From NCBI GenBank assembly GCA_002354335.1, contig DELI01000025.1:21322-85321 (forward strand): 64,000 bases of DNA, written 5' to 3'. The notes below the pieces were generated by a model. The model ran no database searches and was not told the origin of the DNA. It worked only from the letters and a program-made list of their open reading frames with translations. The first letter of the stretch is position 1; every line of letters starts with the position of its first letter. The translations under genes and the position numbers were made by a program. Origin of the DNA: Sphingobacterium sp. UBA2700. Its GTDB lineage: Bacteria > Bacteroidota > Bacteroidia > Sphingobacteriales > Sphingobacteriaceae. Below, in pieces: positions 1,145 to 43,268 of this stretch.

Positions 1145-1249
1145 AAAAATAAAGCTGCCCTTCGATGCAATGCCCCCAAAAAGCAGCCGACAGCCTCGCT
1201 AACTAATAGCTAGCACCGATAAGCTTCGGTCGGGACTAGGACGTGTTAG

Positions 1250-1345
1250 TCCCAATGTAAACCCAATTCAAACCCAATACAAACCCAATGCATACCCAAA
1301 TCAAAACCGTTCTGAAAGGGCTATGATTTGGGTGTGTATGGTTTA
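1250..1345 (+). repeat. 11-bp-periodic AAACCCAAT repeat with hairpin, copy A
   Basis: ACCCAAT-type units start at 1261, 1272, 1283 and 1294, exactly 11 bp apart, with a degenerate unit at 1250. The last unit forms the left arm of a hairpin: ACCCAAATCA (1294-1303) pairs with TGATTTGGGT (1324-1333). A separate small hairpin, GGGACTA/TAGTCCC, lies at 1232-1253. The element sits between convergent genes. Related copies are near 31.0 kb and 43.2 kb, with different but still complementary arms. Confidence 0.75.
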
Positions 1346-1384
1346 ATGAAAGATTGTTATTGCATGAAGAATCGTCGTTGTATC

Positions 1385-2446: not shown

Positions 2447-2758
2447 ATGTACGCAATAGTAAATATAGCAGGACAGCAATTTAAAGTTGCTAAAGACCAA
2501 TACCTTTTTGTACACCGTTTACAAGGAGACGAAGGCGCTAGTATTGAATTTGACAATGTATTGTTAGCAGAGGACGGTGGTAAATTTACTGTTGGTACGC
2601 CAAGTATCTCAGGTGCTAAAGTTTCAGCTACGATTTTGTCTCATTTAAAAGGTGAAAAAGTAATCGTTTTCAAGAAAAAACGTCGTAAAGGCTACAAGAA
2701 GAAAAACGGTCACCGTCAACAATTCACTAAAATCCAGATCACTGGTATCAGTTTATAA
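2447..2758 (+). CDS. rplU: 50S ribosomal protein bL21
   Basis: A 103-residue protein with the bL21 pattern: start [14 protein letters not shown], and a strongly basic central-to-C-terminal tract ([17 protein letters not shown]) that contacts 23S rRNA. The length is normal. It is followed 43 bases later by rpmA, the usual rplU-rpmA arrangement, and has its own good promoter upstream. Confidence 0.97.
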
Positions 2759-2801
2759 TTGAATTTTTAATCTGACGTAAGTCATAAATTAGAATAAAGA
2801 A

Positions 2802-3068
2802 ATGGCACACAAAAAAGGTGCGGGTAGTTCCAAGAACGGCCGTGAGTCACATAGTAAGAGATTAGGTATCAAGATTTTTGGTGGTCAACAAGCAATCGCT
2901 GGAAACATCATCGTTCGCCAACGTGGTACTCAACATAACCCAGATTCTAACGTAGGTATCGGTAAAGACCATACATTATACGCTTTAATCGACGGTACAG
3001 TAGTTTTCCGCAAAAAAGCTAACAATAAATCTTATGTTTCTGTATTACCTACAGAAGAGAACAACTAA
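2802..3068 (+). CDS. rpmA: 50S ribosomal protein bL27
   Basis: An 88-residue protein with the family start [20 protein letters not shown] and the conserved core [11 protein letters not shown], of usual length. bL27 lies near the peptidyl transferase centre of the large subunit. Gly and Ser follow MAHKK directly, so there is no sign of the N-terminal extension removed by a protease in Firmicutes. Second gene of the rplU-rpmA operon, ended by the terminator at 3089-3123. Confidence 0.97.
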
Positions 3069-3088
3069 GATATCTTAAGATCAAAAAA

Positions 3089-3123
3089 AGAGGCTAGCAC
3101 GATGTGTTAGCCTCTTTTTTTTT
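3089..3123 (+). terminator. terminator of rplU-rpmA
   Basis: A 12-bp stem (3089-3100 with 3104-3115, one G-T pair) and a 3-base loop are followed by nine T. It marks the end of the housekeeping operon and the left edge of the defence region. Confidence 0.9.
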
Positions 3124-3339
3124 GGTTCTATGTGTTGGATGTCTGTTTCCCTAATAGATGTCTTAATTTAAATGGGATATTTTCGAAAGAATGATGAGAA
3201 AATTTCATTAAATGTTTTGAATAGGAGTAACATAACTAATACTCAAGACCTAAATCGAATTTAAAGCTCAAGATTTTTTATTGCGTGATTTGAATGTTGT
3301 CTACTTAAAAAGTCTTTTAAAGATTTTTATTTTCATAAA

Positions 3340-4566
3340 TTGTTTTTTATTAAGATTGAACGACAATTGAAAGCATTTTCTTCTATCAAGCAACTATTGG
3401 GTACATTATCCCGTGAGCAGAAGCTCATTAGCGAAATATTCGAGAAACGCAAGTTGCTATCCTATAAATACAACGATGCACTTGAAGTACTAGACTTTGA
3501 TGAGGATAAACTTCGCATTCTTATAGAATTTAATGTTCTACGTGAGAATGGAGCATTTTTGGAACTGGATGATCAATTTTTACAGTTCTTCGAGCAGATA
3601 CTGGAAGTAAATGAAGAGATCAATGTGTTTTTTATTAATGAAAATCTACAGTCCATACATCAAAATATCGTGTATTACCTGCAAGAAAATAGTGAAACGC
3701 GACGCTACAACTATCTTAGGCAGATTAAGAATGCGCTTCGGAAAATAGGGCTTATTGCCATTCGGAATGTTGTTGATTTGAAAAGGAATATTGATAGTAC
3801 ATTCAAAAATGAACCTAACTATAAAATAAAGAAGTCCAAGCTAGAACACCTAGATGTTAAGCGAAACGATATCTCTACTCTGATAAACCTTGCAGATGCT
3901 TTAATCTCTGGAGATGAGGAACAGACTTTTTTTAAAGTGGCCATAGATGAAGAGCTGCAGCAAATCATTTTGTTTTTAAAGAGTCAACTCAATTCCTGCC
4001 GACATAATCTTATAGAAAATCAGAAGCAGATTATAGAGTACTTAAACAGACTTCGGGCCCAAAATTTAATGGTGGAGAAGATTCGTCAGCTTAAATATCT
4101 GAAGGACCAATTTGAGTTACGCTCAAAAACCGATATTCTCGAAATCCTTCGAACAGAAAATTCCTTACTTTTTGAGCCGAAACCGTCTTATTCGCTTAAA
4201 CTTTCAATTGAACAGCTCCAGAATGATGATGCAACCTTGGAATTGGTTAAAAAAGTTCATGCACTAAAAAGATTTGGTAGTAGCCTAAAACAATCTGTTG
4301 CAGAAACCGATCTTAGCGAGTATTTGTCTTCTGAATCGGAGCAAGTTCCACAGGTCAATTTAGAAGAAGTGAAAAATAGCTTTTTAGCTGGCAGCAATAA
4401 CCTTTTTGATTTTCTACAAACTTATGATTTTGGTATGGAGGTTAATTTTGAAGAAAGGTTGACTTTATACTGCCAGTTGGTTTCCCAGTTTGATATTTAT
4501 TTCAGGTTTACGGATGAATATAAGATTAAACATGAAACCGAATATTTAATGATATATCCTGCTTAA
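3340..4566 (+). CDS. jetA: Wadjet subunit JetA (MksF-like kleisin)
   Basis: A 408-residue, largely helical, Lys/Glu-rich protein and first gene of a four-gene operon. By position and type it is the kleisin (JetA/MksF) of a Wadjet SMC complex, which bridges the two SMC heads and carries the JetB dimer. The N-terminal part looks like winged-helix segments (about 1-90), followed by long helices. The sequence is divergent and the call rests mainly on the operon. The start is unclear: the frame has a stop at 3286-3288 and no ATG near it, so translation probably begins at TTG 3340, or at TTG 3367. The next gene starts 1 base after its stop codon. Confidence 0.7.
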   Translation: MFFIKIERQLKAFSSIKQLLGTLSREQKLISEIFEKRKLLSYKYNDALEVLDFDEDKLRILIEFNVLRENGAFLELDDQFLQFFEQILEVNEEINVFFINENLQSIHQNIVYYLQENSETRRYNYLRQIKNALRKIGLIAIRNVVDLKRNIDSTFKNEPNYKIKKSKLEHLDVKRNDISTLINLADALISGDEEQTFFKVAIDEELQQIILFLKSQLNSCRHNLIENQKQIIEYLNRLRAQNLMVEKIRQLKYLKDQFELRSKTDILEILRTENSLLFEPKPSYSLKLSIEQLQNDDATLELVKKVHALKRFGSSLKQSVAETDLSEYLSSESEQVPQVNLEEVKNSFLAGSNNLFDFLQTYDFGMEVNFEERLTLYCQLVSQFDIYFRFTDEYKIKHETEYLMIYPA

Positions 4567-4567
4567 T

Positions 4568-5140
4568 ATGAGTACAATACCCAAACATTCTGCCCATGTA
4601 TTTGAGATTCTGAATAAGGGTCAATTCATTTGTTCAAATAGTACTAAGGACAACATTCGAAAGCTTTATTTAGCAATAAATGAAGATTTTGATGCCTACT
4701 ATGACTATTTCCTTGGAATCAATATGATCCTCGAAGAAGGTGATGAATATTACCATTTTGTTCGATCGGAAAACCGAGCGGAACTCGAGCGAAAGCTGGA
4801 GATAGCGATGAAATGGATTGATATATTAGCCTTTTTAAAAACCTTCGATAATGGTTTTTGCGCAGGTATTCGTTTTAGAATGGCCGATATATTGGCGAGA
4901 TTAGGTGTGGATGCTGATCTTAAGAGTAAACTTGAAAGCCTGAAAAAATATACGTCAGGCAAGGACAAGCATTCAGAAATAATTGTAAAAATACTTGACC
5001 TATTGGAACGGGATAATTTTATTGAACTCGAGAATGATATATCTCAAGAATATAAAGCGTTGGCTTCGTTCGCATACTTGGAAAAGTTAGTTCTGGCTAT
5101 TAATATACCTGAGGAGATACAGTATGAGATACCTGAATAA
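4568..5140 (+). CDS. jetB: Wadjet subunit JetB (MksE-like KITE protein)
   Basis: A 190-residue protein resembling the MksE/JetB family of small winged-helix KITE subunits, which dimerise and bind the kleisin in SMC complexes. Residues about 10-70 (HVFEILNKGQFICSNS, then YDYFLGINMILEEGDEYYHF) look like a winged helix with a beta hairpin; the rest is helical. It starts 1 base after jetA and its end overlaps jetC by 17 bases, so the subunits are probably translationally coupled. No catalytic motif is expected or seen. Confidence 0.7.
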   Translation: MSTIPKHSAHVFEILNKGQFICSNSTKDNIRKLYLAINEDFDAYYDYFLGINMILEEGDEYYHFVRSENRAELERKLEIAMKWIDILAFLKTFDNGFCAGIRFRMADILARLGVDADLKSKLESLKKYTSGKDKHSEIIVKILDLLERDNFIELENDISQEYKALASFAYLEKLVLAINIPEEIQYEIPE

Positions 5141-8100
5141 AGTAGTATTTATAAATAGCGCGAGTATTGCATATGCCGAGATCGGCCTTTCGGGGAATGT
5201 CCATTTTATAGGAACCCAGGGTGTCGGCAAGAGTACATGTTTAAGGGCTATTTTATTTTTTTACAATGCGGATAAAATAAGACTAGGTATTGAAAAGGGC
5301 AAACGTTCTTTTGATGACTATTATTTGCCACATGCTAACTCATTCATTGTTTATGAGGTGATTACCGAGACAGGGCCTTTTTGTGTACTTGCATATAAAT
5401 CTCACGGTAGGGCGGCATTTCGATTTATTGACGCTGCTTACAAGAAGGAAAATTTTGTAGGTTCGGATTTTAAAGCAATGGTTTGGGAACAGATTAGAAA
5501 CACCTTCCCTCAAAATCTATTCTACAGCCGAAAGGTTGAGCGTTACGAAGAATATCGAGATATAATTTATGGAAATAATAAAGGTTTACCATCTACATTC
5601 CGTAAATACGCCTTAATTGAGAGTAAATCGTATCAGAATCTACCGCGGACGATTCAAAATGTCTTTCTCAACTCGAAACTGGAAGCAGAGTTTATAAAAC
5701 AGACGATAATAATGTCTCTGAATGAAGAGGATGTAAGAATAGACTTGGATCAATATTCACTACATCTTAGGAATTTCGAACAACAACTGGCAGATATAGG
5801 TAAATGGTCTGAGCAGAATAAGTCTGGAGAAATTGTTGTTCGAGTGTTGGCAGCAAATATTTCATCGCTGCATAGGATAGTCGGTTTTCTTTCTATCGAA
5901 AAGGGGCAACTTATCCAATCCTTAATCAACACTCACAGGTCTCTGGAGCAAACGCAGCCATTGTTGGTCAAGCAGCTTGATCAGCAGCAGGAAAAATATG
6001 TTGCTGTAGAAAATAAGTTAAAAGTTTCGGATGAGAAGTTTCAGGAGAGGAAAGATAATATCAATAAAGAGATTACGTTGATGGCTGGCAGGATTTCGGA
6101 CGCAAGGCGCAAGAATCAGGAGTATCAACTGATGGATATAACAGGCATCATTGACCGGATATCTAAGAAGGCACTGTGGGAAAATAAAAAGAATAATCTA
6201 CAGTCTGAACGCGATTTACTTTCTTTCCGTTATCAGGAAATTATGGATAAATATGCTGCTTTGCAGCAGCAGCTTAATAATCAACTAGATCAATTTATCA
6301 ATGAAAAAAACAAGGAAGGAAATAATCTAAAGTCAGATTCTTACTTAAACAAGGATACGATCAGAAAGCAGTATGAAAAGATTTCGGCTGACATTTTACT
6401 TGAACAAGCCGATATTAAACACAATGCGGAGATGAAATTGGTAGAAAAGGCGAAATCCAAACACCAATTTGAATTGCAAAGAAAAGCTGCCGAGTTCAAG
6501 CGTTGGTTTGAAGACGAATTGAAAACTGAAGAACAGATAATTGTAAGAACCCAACAAGAGTTGGTTGTGATTAAGAATGAGAGAGTAAGTAATCGTAAGC
6601 AAATTGAATCGCTTCAAAAAAGTTGGGGACTGGACGAAAAGACGGTTGAACTTGATTTTGAATCAAAGAAAGCTAAGCTTGATGAATTAATTGTTTCGGA
6701 AAATCGAAAAATTGAAAAATACAAGACAAGATTGGCAGCCAGCGGTAACTCCTTCTTTGAATGGCTCAATGACAATAAACCAGGATGGGAAGAGAATATT
6801 GGAAAAGTGATAAACGAGCAATCGATACTTTTCAATTCGGGGCTTAAGCCGAGAAATGTTTCATTACAGGGGCATTTGTTTTACGGTGTAGAGCTTGACC
6901 TTTCACAGGTAGAATGTAATATCAAAACTATAGCTGATTATGAAATGGATATCCGAAGAAGTAAGGAAGATATTGAGATATTACAGGGCAAACTTGCCGA
7001 TTTTACAGAACAGCACATCAAAGAAAAGGATAAGATTAGAAAAAAATATCAAACTCAGATAAAGGCACTGAAAGAGTTGATCGCTGTTGGTGATTATAAT
7101 GAAACAAAATTAAATGATGAGTATGCTAGAGCTATTGTGAATCGTGATGAATGGATAAGAAAGTCCCAAACAACGCAAAAGGCCGAGCTAGAGAAACTAA
7201 AAACGGCAATAATTGAAGCCGCTGAAGAAATGGCAATAGCAGAAGAGCATTTACTAGTAATACAAAAGAATATTAATAAGCGTTTGGATGAGAAAAAGCG
7301 GGAAAGAGATCAGAAAATTTCGGAAGTAGATCGAGCGTTAGTTGCTAACCTTGATAAAATAAACGTGACTATTGCCGAAGAGAAGAATAGGGTCCAAGGT
7401 CGAAAAAAAGATATTGAAGACCAGCAGAAAAGGGATTTGGAAAATGATGGTGCAGACGTAGTACGAATAGCAGCTATCGATGTTGAACTTGCGAGTATTG
7501 AGCAGGAGTTAAACTATATTGAAGCAAACAGAGATAAGTTGGCGGAATACAATAAAGACAAACGTGAGTTATTTGATCGTGTTGATGAATTTAAGGAAAA
7601 GAAAAAGCTCGCAGAAGTAAAGCTGTCAGGGGAACAGGAGCGGCATATGGTTGCAAAGACTAAGTTACAGGAAAGAATTAGCGATTTGAGAACTACTATT
7701 GCAGCCTTGGAGCTCGAGCATCGCGAAACAATGGAAGACTTAGAGGCATTCGACAACTTTAGCAAAACGGATCTCTATCTTAGCATGTTATCCGATGTAC
7801 CTAACATTGAGAAAAATAATCCTGTATCTATACGTCTGACTAAAATCATAGCATCTATTCATGAAAAAATCAATGAATCAACAACACGTATGACTGACTT
7901 ACGTAGCAATATAAACCGGTTTTTGAGTAATTTCTCTACAGGAAATATATTCGGATTTGAAACTATTCTCGTAGATGATGTGGAATATCGTCGCTTTGCC
8001 GACAACCTTAGTGAGTTTCTCGAAGAAAATAAAATTGAGGAATACGAGCGACGAACAAATGAACTTTTTGGAAGTCTGATTTCTCAGGTAGGAAAAGAGA

Positions 8101-8798
8101 CTACAGAGTTAGTGTCTAAAGAAGCGATTATTAGCAAGGTTATCCAAGATATTAATCGTGATTTTGTAGAGCGAAATTTCGCAGGGGTAATTAAGGGAAT
8201 TGAGCTTAGGATGACAAATAGCGCCAGTAAGATTGTAACTCTTTTGCAGGAGCTACGTGTTTTTAACGACGAATATGCATTAAGCTTAGGTAAAGCAAAC
8301 TTATTTAGCAACGAAGATTCAGCTCAGAATAATAAAAAGGCTGTGATCTATCTGAGGAGTTTCGCACAGGAGATTGCCTCATCTAAACAGAGTGAGGTAT
8401 CTCTTTCTGATACTTTCGAACTACAGTTTAAGATAGTTGAAAACGACAATGATAGTGGTTGGGTTGAGAAGCTGACAAATGTGGGTTCTGAAGGGACCGA
8501 TGTATTGGTCAAGGCAATGATCAATATTATGTTGCTGAATGTATTTAAAGAAAATGCTTCTAGGAAATTTAAGGACTTCAGGTTGCATTGTATGATGGAC
8601 GAAATTGGGAAATTGCATCCTAATAATGTAAAAGGTATTCTGAAGTTTGCCAACGACCGCAATATTGTGTTGATAAATAGTTCACCGACTTCATATAATG
8701 CTATTGATTATAAACATACCTATTTGTTGAGTAAGGATAAAAGACATACTACGATTGTAAAAAGATTGATTACTAACAATCAAATAAATGGAAATTAG
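5124..8798 (+). CDS. jetC: Wadjet SMC-like ATPase JetC (MksB)
   Basis: A 1224-residue SMC-type motor. Walker A is GTQGVGKST at residues 30-38. A very long coiled-coil part (about 250-1000, rich in Lys, Glu and Gln) follows. An ABC-signature-like stretch GSEGTD lies near 1121 and Walker B with the catalytic Glu in MMDEIGKLHP (D1159, E1160). The head halves sit at the two ends, as in all SMC proteins. In Wadjet the ATPase extrudes DNA loops and detects small circular DNA. The ATG at 5124 is preceded by a GAGGAG stretch and lies inside the end of jetB. Its last 11 bases overlap jetD. All ATPase residues appear intact. Confidence 0.88.
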   Translation: MRYLNKVVFINSASIAYAEIGLSGNVHFIGTQGVGKSTCLRAILFFYNADKIRLGIEKGKRSFDDYYLPHANSFIVYEVITETGPFCVLAYKSHGRAAFRFIDAAYKKENFVGSDFKAMVWEQIRNTFPQNLFYSRKVERYEEYRDIIYGNNKGLPSTFRKYALIESKSYQNLPRTIQNVFLNSKLEAEFIKQTIIMSLNEEDVRIDLDQYSLHLRNFEQQLADIGKWSEQNKSGEIVVRVLAANISSLHRIVGFLSIEKGQLIQSLINTHRSLEQTQPLLVKQLDQQQEKYVAVENKLKVSDEKFQERKDNINKEITLMAGRISDARRKNQEYQLMDITGIIDRISKKALWENKKNNLQSERDLLSFRYQEIMDKYAALQQQLNNQLDQFINEKNKEGNNLKSDSYLNKDTIRKQYEKISADILLEQADIKHNAEMKLVEKAKSKHQFELQRKAAEFKRWFEDELKTEEQIIVRTQQELVVIKNERVSNRKQIESLQKSWGLDEKTVELDFESKKAKLDELIVSENRKIEKYKTRLAASGNSFFEWLNDNKPGWEENIGKVINEQSILFNSGLKPRNVSLQGHLFYGVELDLSQVECNIKTIADYEMDIRRSKEDIEILQGKLADFTEQHIKEKDKIRKKYQTQIKALKELIAVGDYNETKLNDEYARAIVNRDEWIRKSQTTQKAELEKLKTAIIEAAEEMAIAEEHLLVIQKNINKRLDEKKRERDQKISEVDRALVANLDKINVTIAEEKNRVQGRKKDIEDQQKRDLENDGADVVRIAAIDVELASIEQELNYIEANRDKLAEYNKDKRELFDRVDEFKEKKKLAEVKLSGEQERHMVAKTKLQERISDLRTTIAALELEHRETMEDLEAFDNFSKTDLYLSMLSDVPNIEKNNPVSIRLTKIIASIHEKINESTTRMTDLRSNINRFLSNFSTGNIFGFETILVDDVEYRRFADNLSEFLEENKIEEYERRTNELFGSLISQVGKETTELVSKEAIISKVIQDINRDFVERNFAGVIKGIELRMTNSASKIVTLLQELRVFNDEYALSLGKANLFSNEDSAQNNKKAVIYLRSFAQEIASSKQSEVSLSDTFELQFKIVENDNDSGWVEKLTNVGSEGTDVLVKAMINIMLLNVFKENASRKFKDFRLHCMMDEIGKLHPNNVKGILKFANDRNIVLINSSPTSYNAIDYKHTYLLSKDKRHTTIVKRLITNNQINGN

Positions 8799-9648
8799 TA
8801 AGGCATTGGCAGATAAATTGGTGCGTTTGGCAAGGGGAGAGCGTTTGCCAGCCAGTTCCATGCGTTCGAAGCTTGTTTCTGAACTAATAATTGAGGGTAT
8901 TATCATTGATCAAAGAATAGCAAGGAGCAGAAGTTTGCTTTATGTGGCAGATGTTGATGCCTTGAACGGTTTCCTAAGGAATCATTTTTCGATACAAGAT
9001 ATTGAATCGTATGTAGCGGTTTTAAAACAAGTTGGATTTTCCAGAGCTGACCTTACGAGGAGCTCATCAGATTCCAAACTTGTTCCGGTTAGAACTTTTA
9101 AAGGGTTTCTCATAAACAGCTTTATGCCTATCCATGCTAGGTTAGATGATACTGAAATTATCATTCATCCAATTCCCGGTACTTTTCAATTTATCCACAA
9201 TTATGAGACATTCATTCCTGCGCCCGAAGTGATAGTTGTAAACGTTGAAAACTCTGAAAATTTTAGCCGTATAGCACAACAGCAGTTTCTTTTCCAAGGA
9301 TTGTCAGTCCTCTTCGTAAGTCGCTATCCTCAAAATCAGAATAAGGATTTATTAAAGTGGCTACAGAAAATTCCGAACAATTACCTGCACTATGGCGATT
9401 TTGACTATGCTGGGATAAATATTTATTTAAACGAGTATAAACAGAAACTTGGCGAACGTGCTAAATTCTTTATCCCGGACAATTTGGAATTGCTGCTTTC
9501 GAGCTATGGTAGCAAGGTACTTTACGATAGACAAAATCTAACTGTGGATGTGAGCGAAATAAAAGAAACTGGGATAACTGATCTTATCAAACTCATTCAA
9601 CTTTATAAAAAAGGCTTAGAACAAGAGGTGTTTATTGACCTCATTTAA
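8788..9648 (+). CDS. jetD: Wadjet nuclease subunit JetD (MksG), Toprim domain
   Basis: A 286-residue protein. The C-terminal part carries Toprim catalytic residues: a conserved Glu (E154 in VVNVENSENF) and the DxD pair D204/D206 in HYGDFDYAG. These are the metal ligands of topoisomerase-VI-like JetD proteins, which cleave plasmid DNA once the SMC motor stalls. The N-terminal 110 residues should be a helical DNA-binding arm. It is noticeably shorter than the 350-400 residues I expect for JetD, mainly in the N-terminal part. Last gene of the operon, overlapping jetC by 11 bases. Confidence 0.83.
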   Translation: MEISKALADKLVRLARGERLPASSMRSKLVSELIIEGIIIDQRIARSRSLLYVADVDALNGFLRNHFSIQDIESYVAVLKQVGFSRADLTRSSSDSKLVPVRTFKGFLINSFMPIHARLDDTEIIIHPIPGTFQFIHNYETFIPAPEVIVVNVENSENFSRIAQQQFLFQGLSVLFVSRYPQNQNKDLLKWLQKIPNNYLHYGDFDYAGINIYLNEYKQKLGERAKFFIPDNLELLLSSYGSKVLYDRQNLTVDVSEIKETGITDLIKLIQLYKKGLEQEVFIDLI

Positions 9649-10108
9649 TCTTAGTCGTCATTGGAAGTACCCTATGTCTACTGTAGGTGTTTTTGTTTTC
9701 GGCAAGCAGTGTTCTTTATTTGTTACAAATTGTGAAAGAATTGTCTAAATATGTAAAAGCTATTTCAGTTTCAAATCTGTGGGATTGTCATTCTTTCGTC
9801 TTCGTTAATTTCAGCTTATAGCTCCGTTCACGATTGCTCTAGAAATCTAATAACAACCATCACCCTAATTTAACCAGACACGTTTATACAACTTTTCGAT
9901 TTGTTGCAGAATTAGATTGTCTCTTGTAGATTGTAATTTTTCTTTCGTAATGGGTAAAATCTTTACTATGTTTGGCTATAATTGAGGCGGTTATATAAAA
10001 TTAATAATACATGCAAGGGTATTCGACTAGAGTTTCACCGACGAAATTAAACCATGACGGCGAAGAGAATGTCACAACGTATAACAGAACTTAAAAAAAC
10101 AGCAAATT
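9649..10108. other. intergenic stretch between jetD and the Panacea gene
   Basis: 460 AT-rich bases without a convincing gene. A weak imperfect hairpin followed by T-rich sequence lies at about 9669-9702 and may end the jet operon. Near the right end a 21-codon frame (10054-10119) overlaps the start of the next gene. No integrase remnant or tRNA-like repeat was found. Confidence 0.5.
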
Positions 10109-10119
10109 ATGAGCTTTAA
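10054..10119 (+). CDS. possible short leader peptide before the Panacea gene
   Basis: ATG 10054 opens a 21-residue basic peptide that begins MTAKRMSQRITELKK and ends with a TAA at 10117-10119. The frame overlaps the first 11 bases of the antitoxin gene, whose ATG is at 10109. That layout would allow translational coupling. There is no homology evidence, and a frame of this length may occur by chance. Confidence 0.25.
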   Translation: MTAKRMSQRITELKKTANYEL

Positions 10120-10627
10120 AATTGATAGGAGTAAAGCTATAAATTCAATGCTTTATATTATCGAATCACTTAATGATATAGGTATCCCATCGGACATCCA
10201 TAAGTTGATGAAATTAATGTATTTTGCTGATAAGGATCATTTGGTAAAATACGGCTTCCCTATTACAGGCGATACTTACATTAAACTCCCCTATGGTACA
10301 GTTCCATCATTTTCAAATTTTGTGTTAAAAAATGAAAATGACGACTTTAGGGATATTTTCACCAGATCCGGTTACATCATATCGTCCGAACAAAAGGCAG
10401 ATTTGGACGATCTTTCCGAGAGCGAAATTGAAAGTCTTAATTTCTCGATCGATAATTTTGGACATTACACGTTTGAAGAATTAACGAAAATTTCTCATGG
10501 ATATGCGTACGAATCCAGCGATTGGGATATTTCCTATGAGAAAATCGCAGAGGAGGGTGGTGCTGAAAACGATATGAAAGCTTTTATAAAAGAACAGATT
10601 CTTAACGATCATATCTCATTTTCTTAG
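10109..10627 (+). CDS. Panacea-domain (SocA-type) antitoxin
   Basis: A 172-residue protein with the SocA/Panacea (DUF4065-like) pattern: HKLMKLMYFADKDHLVKYG, then PITGDTYIKLPYGTVPS, with a helical remainder. Panacea domains are antitoxins that neutralise many unrelated toxins, usually encoded next to them. Six bases separate its stop from the next gene, a typical two-gene toxin-antitoxin layout, and it lies just behind the Wadjet operon. The protein should be cytoplasmic. The antitoxin role is inferred from family and context. Confidence 0.8.
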   Translation: MSFKIDRSKAINSMLYIIESLNDIGIPSDIHKLMKLMYFADKDHLVKYGFPITGDTYIKLPYGTVPSFSNFVLKNENDDFRDIFTRSGYIISSEQKADLDDLSESEIESLNFSIDNFGHYTFEELTKISHGYAYESSDWDISYEKIAEEGGAENDMKAFIKEQILNDHISFS

Positions 10628-10633
10628 TTTACA

Positions 10634-11086
10634 ATGAGTTTTGGTGATTTATTTCCGAAGAATTTTAAAGAAGAACATTTCAAGGGAATAGATTTAGGAA
10701 TCGCGATTTTGGTTGAAATTCCTAATTTTAATATTGATTACAAGAAGATTGCAATTTATTTCGCTAATGATAATATAATTGAGGGAAATTGCGGATTGGT
10801 CATTATAAACTCTGCAATAAATGAAAATGTAAACAGAAACCAATTCCTTCGATTGCAGCATATCCCCATTGATGTTGAGCGACATGATTTCTTAGAATAC
10901 GATAGTTATGTTGACTGCACTCAAATTCATAATAAGGTAATTCAAGAAATTGTAGATTTTTTAGTTCAAGATCCGAAGCGATTACTAGGGAATGTTGCTC
11001 CAGATGTTTTATTGAAAGTTCATGATAAATTAGTGAACAGTAGATTAATTTCTAGAAAGGAAAAATTAAGATACTCTTTAATATAA
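10634..11086 (+). CDS. candidate toxin partner of the Panacea antitoxin
   Basis: A 150-residue soluble protein, six bases after the Panacea gene. I do not recognise it firmly. The middle (FLRLQHIPIDVERHDFLEYD, then SYVDCTQIHNKVIQEIV) and the end (a segment with PKRLLGNVAPDVLLKV) recall MazF/PemK-type beta-barrel proteins in spacing: a strand with a Ser/Asp pair, then a helix pair with a Gly after Arg-Leu-Leu. This is a weak resemblance. As the neighbour of an antitoxin it is a candidate toxin, possibly a ribonuclease if the PemK-like reading holds. Confidence 0.5.
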   Translation: MSFGDLFPKNFKEEHFKGIDLGIAILVEIPNFNIDYKKIAIYFANDNIIEGNCGLVIINSAINENVNRNQFLRLQHIPIDVERHDFLEYDSYVDCTQIHNKVIQEIVDFLVQDPKRLLGNVAPDVLLKVHDKLVNSRLISRKEKLRYSLI

Positions 11087-11261
11087 GTCCTACCATTTCT
11101 AGGTTTATTTGTCAAAAAAAAGGGCGATTTCAATATTGCATGTTGTTAAGTAGTTACTCCAAGTAAATTCATAAAACTAAGCGTCGTTCAATACTTAGTG
11201 TGTTTGATCTAGGCTACCTCTTTAGGCTGAACGAAAGATAAAGGTAATATGGATTCAATAA

Positions 11262-11297
11262 AAAGAAAAAAGCGTTAAATTTTCTAAAAATAACGCT
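11262..11297 (-). terminator. terminator of tRNA-Ala
   Basis: On the minus strand, AGCGTTA and TAACGCT (11271-11277 with 11291-11297) form a stem followed by a T run (complement of the A-rich 11262-11270). It lies directly downstream of the tRNA. Confidence 0.6.
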
Positions 11298-11313
11298 TAA
11301 TATTACTACGGTG

Positions 11314-11387
<74 letters not shown>

Positions 11388-30995: not shown

Positions 30996-31068
30996 ACCCA
31001 ATATACACCCCAATCATAACCCTATCGAAGCGGTTATGATTGGGGTTTGTATTGGGTTTACATTGGGT
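30996..31068 (-). repeat. 11-bp-periodic AAACCCAAT repeat with hairpin, copy B
   Basis: In minus orientation. ATTGGGT units end at 31046, 31057 and 31068, 11 bp apart. A 15-bp perfect stem pairs ACCCCAATCATAACC (31007-31021) with its complement at 31032-31046. An outer ACCCAATA/TATTGGGT pairing extends the arms to 30996 and 31057. Lies between the convergent mnmA and gapA genes. Confidence 0.8.
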
Positions 31069-31176
31069 TTGAAAGGGCTTTATGCAGAACCAGTGTCGTT
31101 AAAGACCTTTCGTATTTTAATTGCAATACCAATGGGTTTGAATATTCTTGATGGCCTTTGAAAGCATATACTTTTA

Positions 31177-43190: not shown

Positions 43191-43205
43191 TCATTCCCCT
43201 TTCAA

Positions 43206-43268
43206 ACCCAATGCTTACCCAATGTAAACCCCTATCAGAACCCTTTCGGAAGGGCTATGATAGGGGTT
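43206..43268 (+). repeat. 11-bp-periodic AAACCCAAT repeat with hairpin, copy C
   Basis: ACCC units start at 43206, 43217 and 43228, 11 bp apart. The last one opens a hairpin: AACCCCTATCA (43227-43237) with TGATAGGGGTT (43258-43268), and inside it CCCTT with AAGGG around TCGG. Confidence 0.78.

What the first reader, a model, noticed from the sequence alone, without database searches (positions are those of the whole stretch)
3340..9648. Complete Wadjet (JetABCD / MksFEBG) anti-plasmid operon
Four overlapping or 1-base-spaced genes have the order kleisin, KITE, SMC ATPase, Toprim nuclease. The SMC carries intact Walker A, signature-like and Walker B motifs, and the last gene has E154 and D204/D206 of a Toprim site. 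Wadjet senses small circular DNA by loop extrusion and cleaves it. The kleisin and KITE proteins are divergent and start at a non-ATG codon, so this may be a less studied Bacteroidetes branch.
Basis: partly seen in the sequence, partly recalled or inferred. Interest (0 to 1): 0.75.

Follow-up and report, generated by a model that had tools for sequence, protein, structure and literature searches.

The report
Divergent compact Wadjet anti-plasmid operon
Four overlapping genes in a Sphingobacterium-like bacterium encode a divergent relative of the Wadjet machine, which in other bacteria reels in small circular DNA and cuts it; the lineage is found across many genera but is scarce, and the defence-gene models tried here barely recognise it.

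Summary
KITE JetB matches Pfam MksE (1.8e-37), SMC JetC matches DUF3584 almost end to end (2e-61), and JetD matches DUF7281 and PADLOC JetD1; the JetD model resembles MksG, JetD and Topo VI-A. JetA has no family match, but its model is MukF-like. Of 72 related loci, 60 keep A-B-C-D order; the four genes co-diverge, and the catalytic residues are invariant in all aligned near-full-length rows (70 JetD, 64 JetC). It is a separate branch: JetA and JetB match no PADLOC model, whereas three type I operons of the same phylum match that library strongly. Distinct traits are a 286-aa JetD without the DUF3322 arm, a ~399-aa kleisin, and an S-x-G-T-D signature in place of SGGE/Q. In the window it lies in an 8.2-kb insert between rpmA and tRNA-Ala that a genome with 98%-identical flanks lacks. 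Anti-plasmid activity is inferred. Verdict: new variant of a known kind.

The parts
   Evidence: length and start agree with relatives; no Pfam match above cut-off, no PADLOC or NCBIfam match; model pLDDT 78.1, best Foldseek match MukE-MukF entry 3euh_B, E 5.1e-4
4568..5140 (+). jetB / mksE: KITE, 190 aa, ATG start
   Evidence: PF21980 MksE 1.8e-37; no PADLOC match
5124..8798 (+). jetC / mksB: SMC ATPase, 1224 aa
   Evidence: PF12128 DUF3584 2.1e-61 over residues 18-1194; PADLOC JetC1 4.6e-5 over residues 1-54 only, and DruD1 0.0028
5211..5237 (+). Walker A of JetC, GTQGVGKST (residues 30-38)
   Evidence: G30, G35, K36 and S37 in 64 of 64 rows
8484..8501 (+). ABC signature of JetC, G-S-E-G-T-D (residues 1121-1126), non-canonical
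   Evidence: G1121, S1122, G1124, T1125 and D1126 in 64 of 64 rows; residue 1123 is E (46), D (12) or N (6)
8598..8603 (+). Walker B acid pair D1159-E1160 of JetC
   Evidence: 64 of 64 rows
8788..9648 (+). jetD / mksG: winged-helix plus Toprim nuclease, 286 aa
9247..9249 (+). Toprim acid E154
   Evidence: 70 of 70 rows
9397..9405 (+). Toprim D204-x-D206
   Evidence: 70 of 70 rows
9616..9627 (+). C-terminal L-E-Q-E motif of JetD (residues 277-280), as R-L-E-Q-E in longer JetD proteins
   Evidence: Q279 and E280 in 70 of 70 rows, residue 278 E (41) or D (29); same motif in 6 of 6 Bacteroidota JetD of alignment A5
3126..11311 (.). 8.2-kb insert between the rpmA terminator and tRNA-Ala that carries the operon
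   Evidence: G001 (98% identical flanks) has 1153 bp of unrelated DNA here and G003 has 25 bp
3083..3121 (+). terminator hairpin behind rpmA, left edge of the insert
   Evidence: identity to G001 ends at 3125
11313..11387 (-). tRNA-Ala(GGC), right edge of the insert

Best explanation
A complete, probably functional Wadjet-group (JetABCD = MksFEBG) system of a divergent branch. JetA (kleisin), JetB (KITE) and JetC (SMC) would form an ATP-driven dimeric DNA-loop extruder; on a small circle the two motors run out of DNA, stall, and present bent DNA to the JetD dimer, whose Toprim metal site (E154, D204, D206) and C-terminal LEQE acids cut it. Shown here: gene content, order, ATPase and Toprim motifs, the JetD Toprim fold, co-divergence of the four genes, and presence/absence between near-identical genomes. 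Inferred from type I Wadjet: loop extrusion, circle recognition, cleavage and the anti-plasmid effect. The short JetD lacks the DUF3322 arm, so its docking on JetABC is probably simpler than in type I.
For: Family matches of B, C and D; MukF-like JetA model; JetD model closest to MksG 8b7f, Topo VI-A and JetD 7til. A-B-C-D order in 60 of 72 loci. Pairwise divergence of the four proteins correlates at 0.89-0.97 over 59 operons (58 loci and the window) against a largest shuffled value of 0.20. Catalytic residues in 70 of 70 JetD and 64 of 64 JetC rows. The LEQE motif is shared with longer JetD proteins. Insert absent from a genome with 98%-identical flanks. Type I mechanism and the JetD/Topo VI DNA bend: passages of PMC10586767, PMC13040014 and PMC12287153.
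Against: JetA and JetB match no PADLOC model at E <= 1, and JetC matches JetC1 only over its N-terminus. None of six PDB sequence or profile searches with JetA-D found a Wadjet chain. Profile comparison with other Bacteroidota Jet operons is weak: JetB probability 73%, JetD 26% (E 7e-4), JetC 4%, JetA 1%. The helical part of the JetA model also aligns with syntaxin, STAT and CorA helices at about the same Z. Some relatives sit on plasmid records. No functional data.
Confidence: 0.85

Rival explanations
1. Same machine, different main target (this overlaps with the best explanation): it restricts phage or other replicating DNA forms rather than small plasmids.
For: Three relatives carry nuclease-type or other accessory genes inserted between jetB and jetC (L018, L057, L072), some neighbours are restriction components (no background control), and the missing JetD arm and the JetA/B proteins are where it differs most from type I.
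Against: Characterised members of the group act on plasmids (PMC10123090, PMC12287153; passages). Nothing here points to a phage trigger; no JetD match in 50,697 phage records and, of 44 stretches matching a pattern in viral contigs, none confirmed.
Confidence: 0.15
2. A chromosome-organising MksBEF condensin in which the Toprim protein helps resolve chromosomes, not a defence system.
For: JetB falls in the Pfam family named after condensin MksE; MukBEF folds the E. coli chromosome (PMC7617805, passage).
Against: The insert is missing from a genome with 98%-identical flanks. No convincing JetD of this type in 296 Bacteroidota genomes (a lower bound, since the distant G187 copy was not listed). 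The nuclease is co-inherited with the SMC genes.
Confidence: 0.06
3. A decaying or silent copy.
For: Some relatives are broken (L017 in fragments, L069 a JetD remnant).
Against: All four window ORFs are full length with intact motifs. JetB dN/dS against L001 is about 0.04, but at dS 2.4, so it is rough; for the other three silent sites were saturated and no ratio was obtained.
Confidence: 0.05

Closest known systems
Wadjet type I (E. coli GF4-3, P. aeruginosa PA14; Bacteroidota controls L094, L095, L101)
   Same: gene order kleisin-KITE-SMC-nuclease in the controls, Toprim E/DxD and LEQE motif, Toprim fold
   Different: no JetA1/JetB1 match; JetD 286 aa without DUF3322 against 380-403 aa in the three controls; kleisin ~399 against 482-486 aa; SMC signature S-x-G-T-D against SGG(E/Q); JetC in Pfam DUF3584, which L095 JetC does not match at E <= 0.01
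MksBEFG of Corynebacterium glutamicum (a Wadjet type I system per PMC10123090)
   Different: 12% identity in that alignment; the N-terminal part is not covered
MukBEF
   Same: JetA model matches the MukE-MukF entry 3euh (Foldseek E 5.1e-4); KITE and SMC layout
   Different: MukBEF lacks the MksG/JetD nuclease (PMC7617805 passage)
Pfam DUF7281 (PF23947)
   Same: JetD is a member above the curated cut-off (31.0 against 27 bits); relatives are named after it
   Different: no paper in the library holds the word DUF7281; among the 120 listed relatives of 1218, NCBI calls one Wadjet JetD (P0077)
   Same: JetD 263 aa with LEQE, SMC with S-T-G-T-D, MksE-like KITE
   Different: gene order SMC-JetD-398 aa-KITE and an SMC of only 887 aa

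Membership tests
Wadjet / MksBEFG group | four-gene operon kleisin, KITE, SMC, Toprim nuclease | tested here: met
   60 of 72 loci keep the order; the kleisin is the least certain member (see below)
Wadjet / MksBEFG group | MukB-like SMC with Walker A, signature and Walker B | tested here: met
   the signature is a variant, S-x-G-T-D
Wadjet / MksBEFG group | KITE of the MukE/MksE kind | tested here: met
   PF21980 129.6 bits against cut-off 27
Wadjet / MksBEFG group | MukF/JetA-like kleisin | tested here: inconclusive
Wadjet / MksBEFG group | JetD with winged-helix (CAP) and Toprim domains, acids E and DxD | tested here: met
Wadjet / MksBEFG group | no catalytic tyrosine in the CAP domain | tested here: inconclusive
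   Y75 is kept in 65 of 70 rows, T/A/I in 5; not superposed on the Topo VI tyrosine
Wadjet / MksBEFG group | restricts plasmids in vivo | not testable with these tools
   needs transformation assays
Wadjet type I | JetA1 (DUF3375), JetB1 (DUF4194) and full-length JetC1 model matches | tested here: not met
   none, none, and residues 1-54 only; positive controls L094, L095 and L101 match
Wadjet type I | JetD N-terminal DUF3322 domain | tested here: not met
   no PF11795 match at E <= 1; PF09983 18.2 bits, below cut-off 22; L095 JetD matches both
Wadjet types II and III | matches to the PADLOC models of types 2 and 3 | tested here: not met
   JetA, JetB and JetC none, JetD only JetD3 at 0.0039; no type II or III operon was found as a positive control (searched JetD2 in 198 genomes; its 4 matches include two type I loci)

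The most novel reading that the evidence does not exclude
This is a fourth, undescribed Wadjet type, defined by a mini-JetD (winged helix plus Toprim, no DUF3322 arm), a kleisin just under 400 aa and an SMC with an S-x-G-T-D signature, exchanged across Bacteroidota, Nitrospirota and gill-symbiont bacteria, and possibly reading a different DNA length or topology than type I. A recent census of the group kept only kleisins of 400-1200 aa and may have dropped most of it.
Probability: 0.4. Interest if true: 0.55.

Novelty: new variant of a known kind. Interest (0 to 1): 0.42.

Why it matters
Mechanistic work on Wadjet rests mostly on type I (said in PMC10586767, passage). A branch with a nuclease about 100 residues shorter and an altered ATPase signature is a natural minimal version for asking which parts sense DNA circles and which license cutting. 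It also means that surveys built on models like PADLOC's probably miss a lineage for which one search of the kleisin returned 2399 relatives (candidates capped at 7998, 120 listed).

Tried and rejected
Kleisin and KITE replaced by a metallophosphoesterase and a PD-(D/E)XK nuclease in L018 and L057: this looked striking but is wrong. JetA and JetB lie 8.0 and 8.4 kb upstream of jetC on the same contigs, so the operon is split by inserted genes, as also in L072. L018/L057 jetC and jetD evolve under purifying selection (dN/dS 0.16 and 0.15).

A JetD tyrosine nucleophile as in Topo VI (Y75): not supported as essential, since 5 of 70 rows lack it.

A conserved fifth gene: none seen; the commonest neighbour cluster (RhuM family, 8 genes) occurs at 7 of 72 loci. 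Neighbours were looked at without a background control: 123 of the 129 nearest neighbours within 2.5 kb were scanned and 6 dropped for length. RhuM in 8, WYL in 4, N6 methylase in 2, HsdR-N in 2, GmrSD in 2 of 123; only the 25 commonest of 129 families are shown. I treat this as description only.

Searches of 296 Bacteroidota genomes with PF23947, profile A2 and PF12128 gave 0, 1 and 8 genomes with matches. The single A2 match covers 36 residues of a frame of about 1590 aa. The PF12128 matches are all below its cut-off; the best is the SMC of L097 (G187). These understate presence: PF23947 rang in no control genome, and A2 did not list the copy in G187 that a local profile search finds.

Sequence and profile searches of solved structures gave no Wadjet chain and only what I take as chance matches. 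Rfam finds only the tRNA. Promoter-like sites are about as frequent as in shuffled sequence (30 against 27.7).

Full report
What is there. Four + strand genes run from 3367 to 9648: JetA 3367-4566, a 1-base gap, JetB 4568-5140, a 17-bp overlap, JetC 5124-8798, an 11-bp overlap, JetD 8788-9648. Of 62 single JetA ORFs, 49 are 396-399 aa and 51 are under 400 aa, and starting at TTG 3367 gives 399 aa, the length and start codon of five close relatives.

Family evidence. JetB is Pfam MksE (1.8e-37, 129.6 bits against a cut-off of 27). JetC is DUF3584 over residues 18-1194 (2.1e-61). JetD is DUF7281 (2.4e-7, above cut-off), with JetD_C at 0.0016, below cut-off. JetA matches nothing above cut-off. 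PADLOC gives JetD1 for JetD (1.9e-8), JetC1 for the first 54 residues of JetC (4.6e-5; also DruD1 at 0.0028), and nothing for JetA or JetB at E <= 1. NCBIfam and PHROGs give nothing for the four. As positive controls, operons found through MksE in other Bacteroidota (regions) were scanned with PADLOC: all four proteins of L094, L095 and L101 match JetA1, JetB1, JetC1 and JetD1 strongly, while those of L093 and L096 match nothing at E <= 0.01. The window operon therefore falls outside what these models call type I. No type II or III operon turned up as a control, so for those types the statement rests on the models alone. Profile comparisons with five or six Bacteroidota operons (L095, L101 and, for JetD, L094 typed as type I; L098, L099, L100 and L102 not typed) gave JetB probability 73%, JetD 26% (E 7e-4, spanning the E, DxD and LEQE motifs), JetC 4% and JetA 1%.

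Relatives. One scan of 84,980 species genomes with JetD found 72 loci. By record titles (lineages recalled) 70 are Bacteroidota and 2 (L056, L070) are Bathymodiolus symbionts; the protein searches also list Nitrospirae MAGs. Of the 72, 60 have single A, B, C and D in order on one strand (this includes L072, with two genes between B and C). Of the other 12: L018 and L057 have A and B 8.0 and 8.4 kb upstream of C; L025 and L059 have the kleisin inverted downstream (L059 is also cut at the contig start); L017 is in fragments; L069 is a remnant; L005, L015, L016, L051, L066 and L070 are cut by contig ends. Over 59 operons (58 loci and the window) the pairwise divergence of the four proteins correlates at 0.89-0.97, against at most 0.20 in 999 shuffles per pair. 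Relatedness of the host species alone would also produce such a correlation, so it shows co-inheritance, not contact.

Motifs. Rows outside 0.9-1.15 of the window's length were dropped, leaving 62 JetA, 60 JetB, 64 JetC and 70 JetD rows, the window included. JetC keeps G30, G35, K36, S37, D1159 and E1160 in 64 of 64 rows. Its signature is G-S-(E/D/N)-G-T-D, all but the bracketed residue invariant; the five JetC of alignment A8 have S-G-G. JetD keeps E154, D204, D206, Q279 and E280 in 70 of 70 rows, and residue 278 is E or D. The C-terminal LEQE matches the R-L-E-Q-E motif kept in 6 of 6 longer JetD proteins of the phylum. Two conserved glutamates of JetD, corresponding to E349 and E351 of MksG, have been proposed as nucleophiles (PMC10123090, passage); that they are these LEQE acids is my inference.

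Setting. The nearest held genome, G001, is 98% identical on both sides but has 1153 bp of other DNA between the rpmA terminator and tRNA-Ala where the window has 8186 bp; G003 of the same genus has 25 bp there. The site is a variable slot and the operon is accessory. The same insert carries a Panacea-domain gene and a 150-aa partner. Closest named relatives are Sphingobacterium (S. hotanense JetD 86%; S. humi 70%); that the window is a Sphingobacterium is inferred.

Mechanism. From work on characterised systems (passages of PMC10586767, PMC12287153, PMC13040014 and PMC10123090), JetABC extrudes loops on circular DNA until stalled, and JetD cuts the bent segment. The parts needed are present here. 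Missing relative to type I is the DUF3322 arm of JetD (present in L095), so coupling between motor and nuclease must differ in detail.

Novelty. Six library searches that could have shown a Bacteroidota or new-type Wadjet and one for DUF7281 showed no description of this branch in their listings; I read passages of six papers only, and the library holds open-licence papers only. Wadjet in the phylum as such is not new: PMC10123090 counts 4.2% of its DUF3322-plus-DUF2220 proteins in Bacteroidetes (passage), an architecture this JetD lacks. NCBI already names one member Wadjet JetD (P0077), while the named kleisin relatives among the 120 listed are called hypothetical or uncharacterized protein. 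A 2025 census of the group (PMC7617805, methods passage) kept kleisins of 400-1200 aa, which would exclude 51 of the 62 single JetA ORFs here as I called them; its operon list was not seen. I therefore call this a new variant of a known kind. Function is unproven.

Noticed in passing
window 10109-11086: A Panacea (SocA-like, PF13274 5.4e-22) gene followed 6 bp later by a 150-aa gene with no Pfam match: a likely toxin-antitoxin pair of unknown toxin type in the same insert as the Wadjet operon.
   Followed up: partly
window 3126-11311; L078, L079: The rpmA/tRNA-Ala interval is a variable slot: 8186 bp in the window, 1153 bp with other small ORFs in G001, 25 bp in G003.
   Followed up: yes
L093 4735-10826 and L096 6001-12123: Another four-gene MksBEF-like operon (kleisin 456/437, KITE 224/215, SMC 1056/1080, fourth gene 305/317 aa) with no PADLOC match; the L093 SMC matches MukB_N above cut-off and the L096 fourth gene is weakly JetD_C.
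   Followed up: partly
L097 7279-12454: Rearranged sister operon in the order SMC (887 aa), JetD (263 aa), 398-aa gene, KITE (182 aa), with the same S-x-G-T-D signature and LEQE motif.
   Followed up: partly
L018, L057, L072: Genes inserted between jetB and jetC: 8.0 kb in L018 and 8.4 kb in L057, both with REase-ARP and metallophosphoesterase genes (RhuM and TPR genes too in L018), and a DUF1016/YhcG nuclease pair in L072; the B/C junction may be a recurrent insertion point.
   Followed up: partly
L114 (Persicobacter plasmid pPP6, 157 kb) and L115 (Phocaeicola massiliensis, 65 kb): JetD relatives of this branch on plasmid records (4 of 72,556); on pPP6 four consecutive genes of the expected sizes lie at locus 2574-8858, the L115 record has no annotation. 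Why a plasmid would carry an anti-plasmid system is open.
   Followed up: partly
window 1248-1300, 31040-31081, 43204-43223: Arrays of an 11-bp unit around AAACCCAATNN: 8 matches in the window against 0.14 expected, and 34 places in G001 similar to window 1251-1364 in a capped list; an unexplained interspersed repeat.
   Followed up: no
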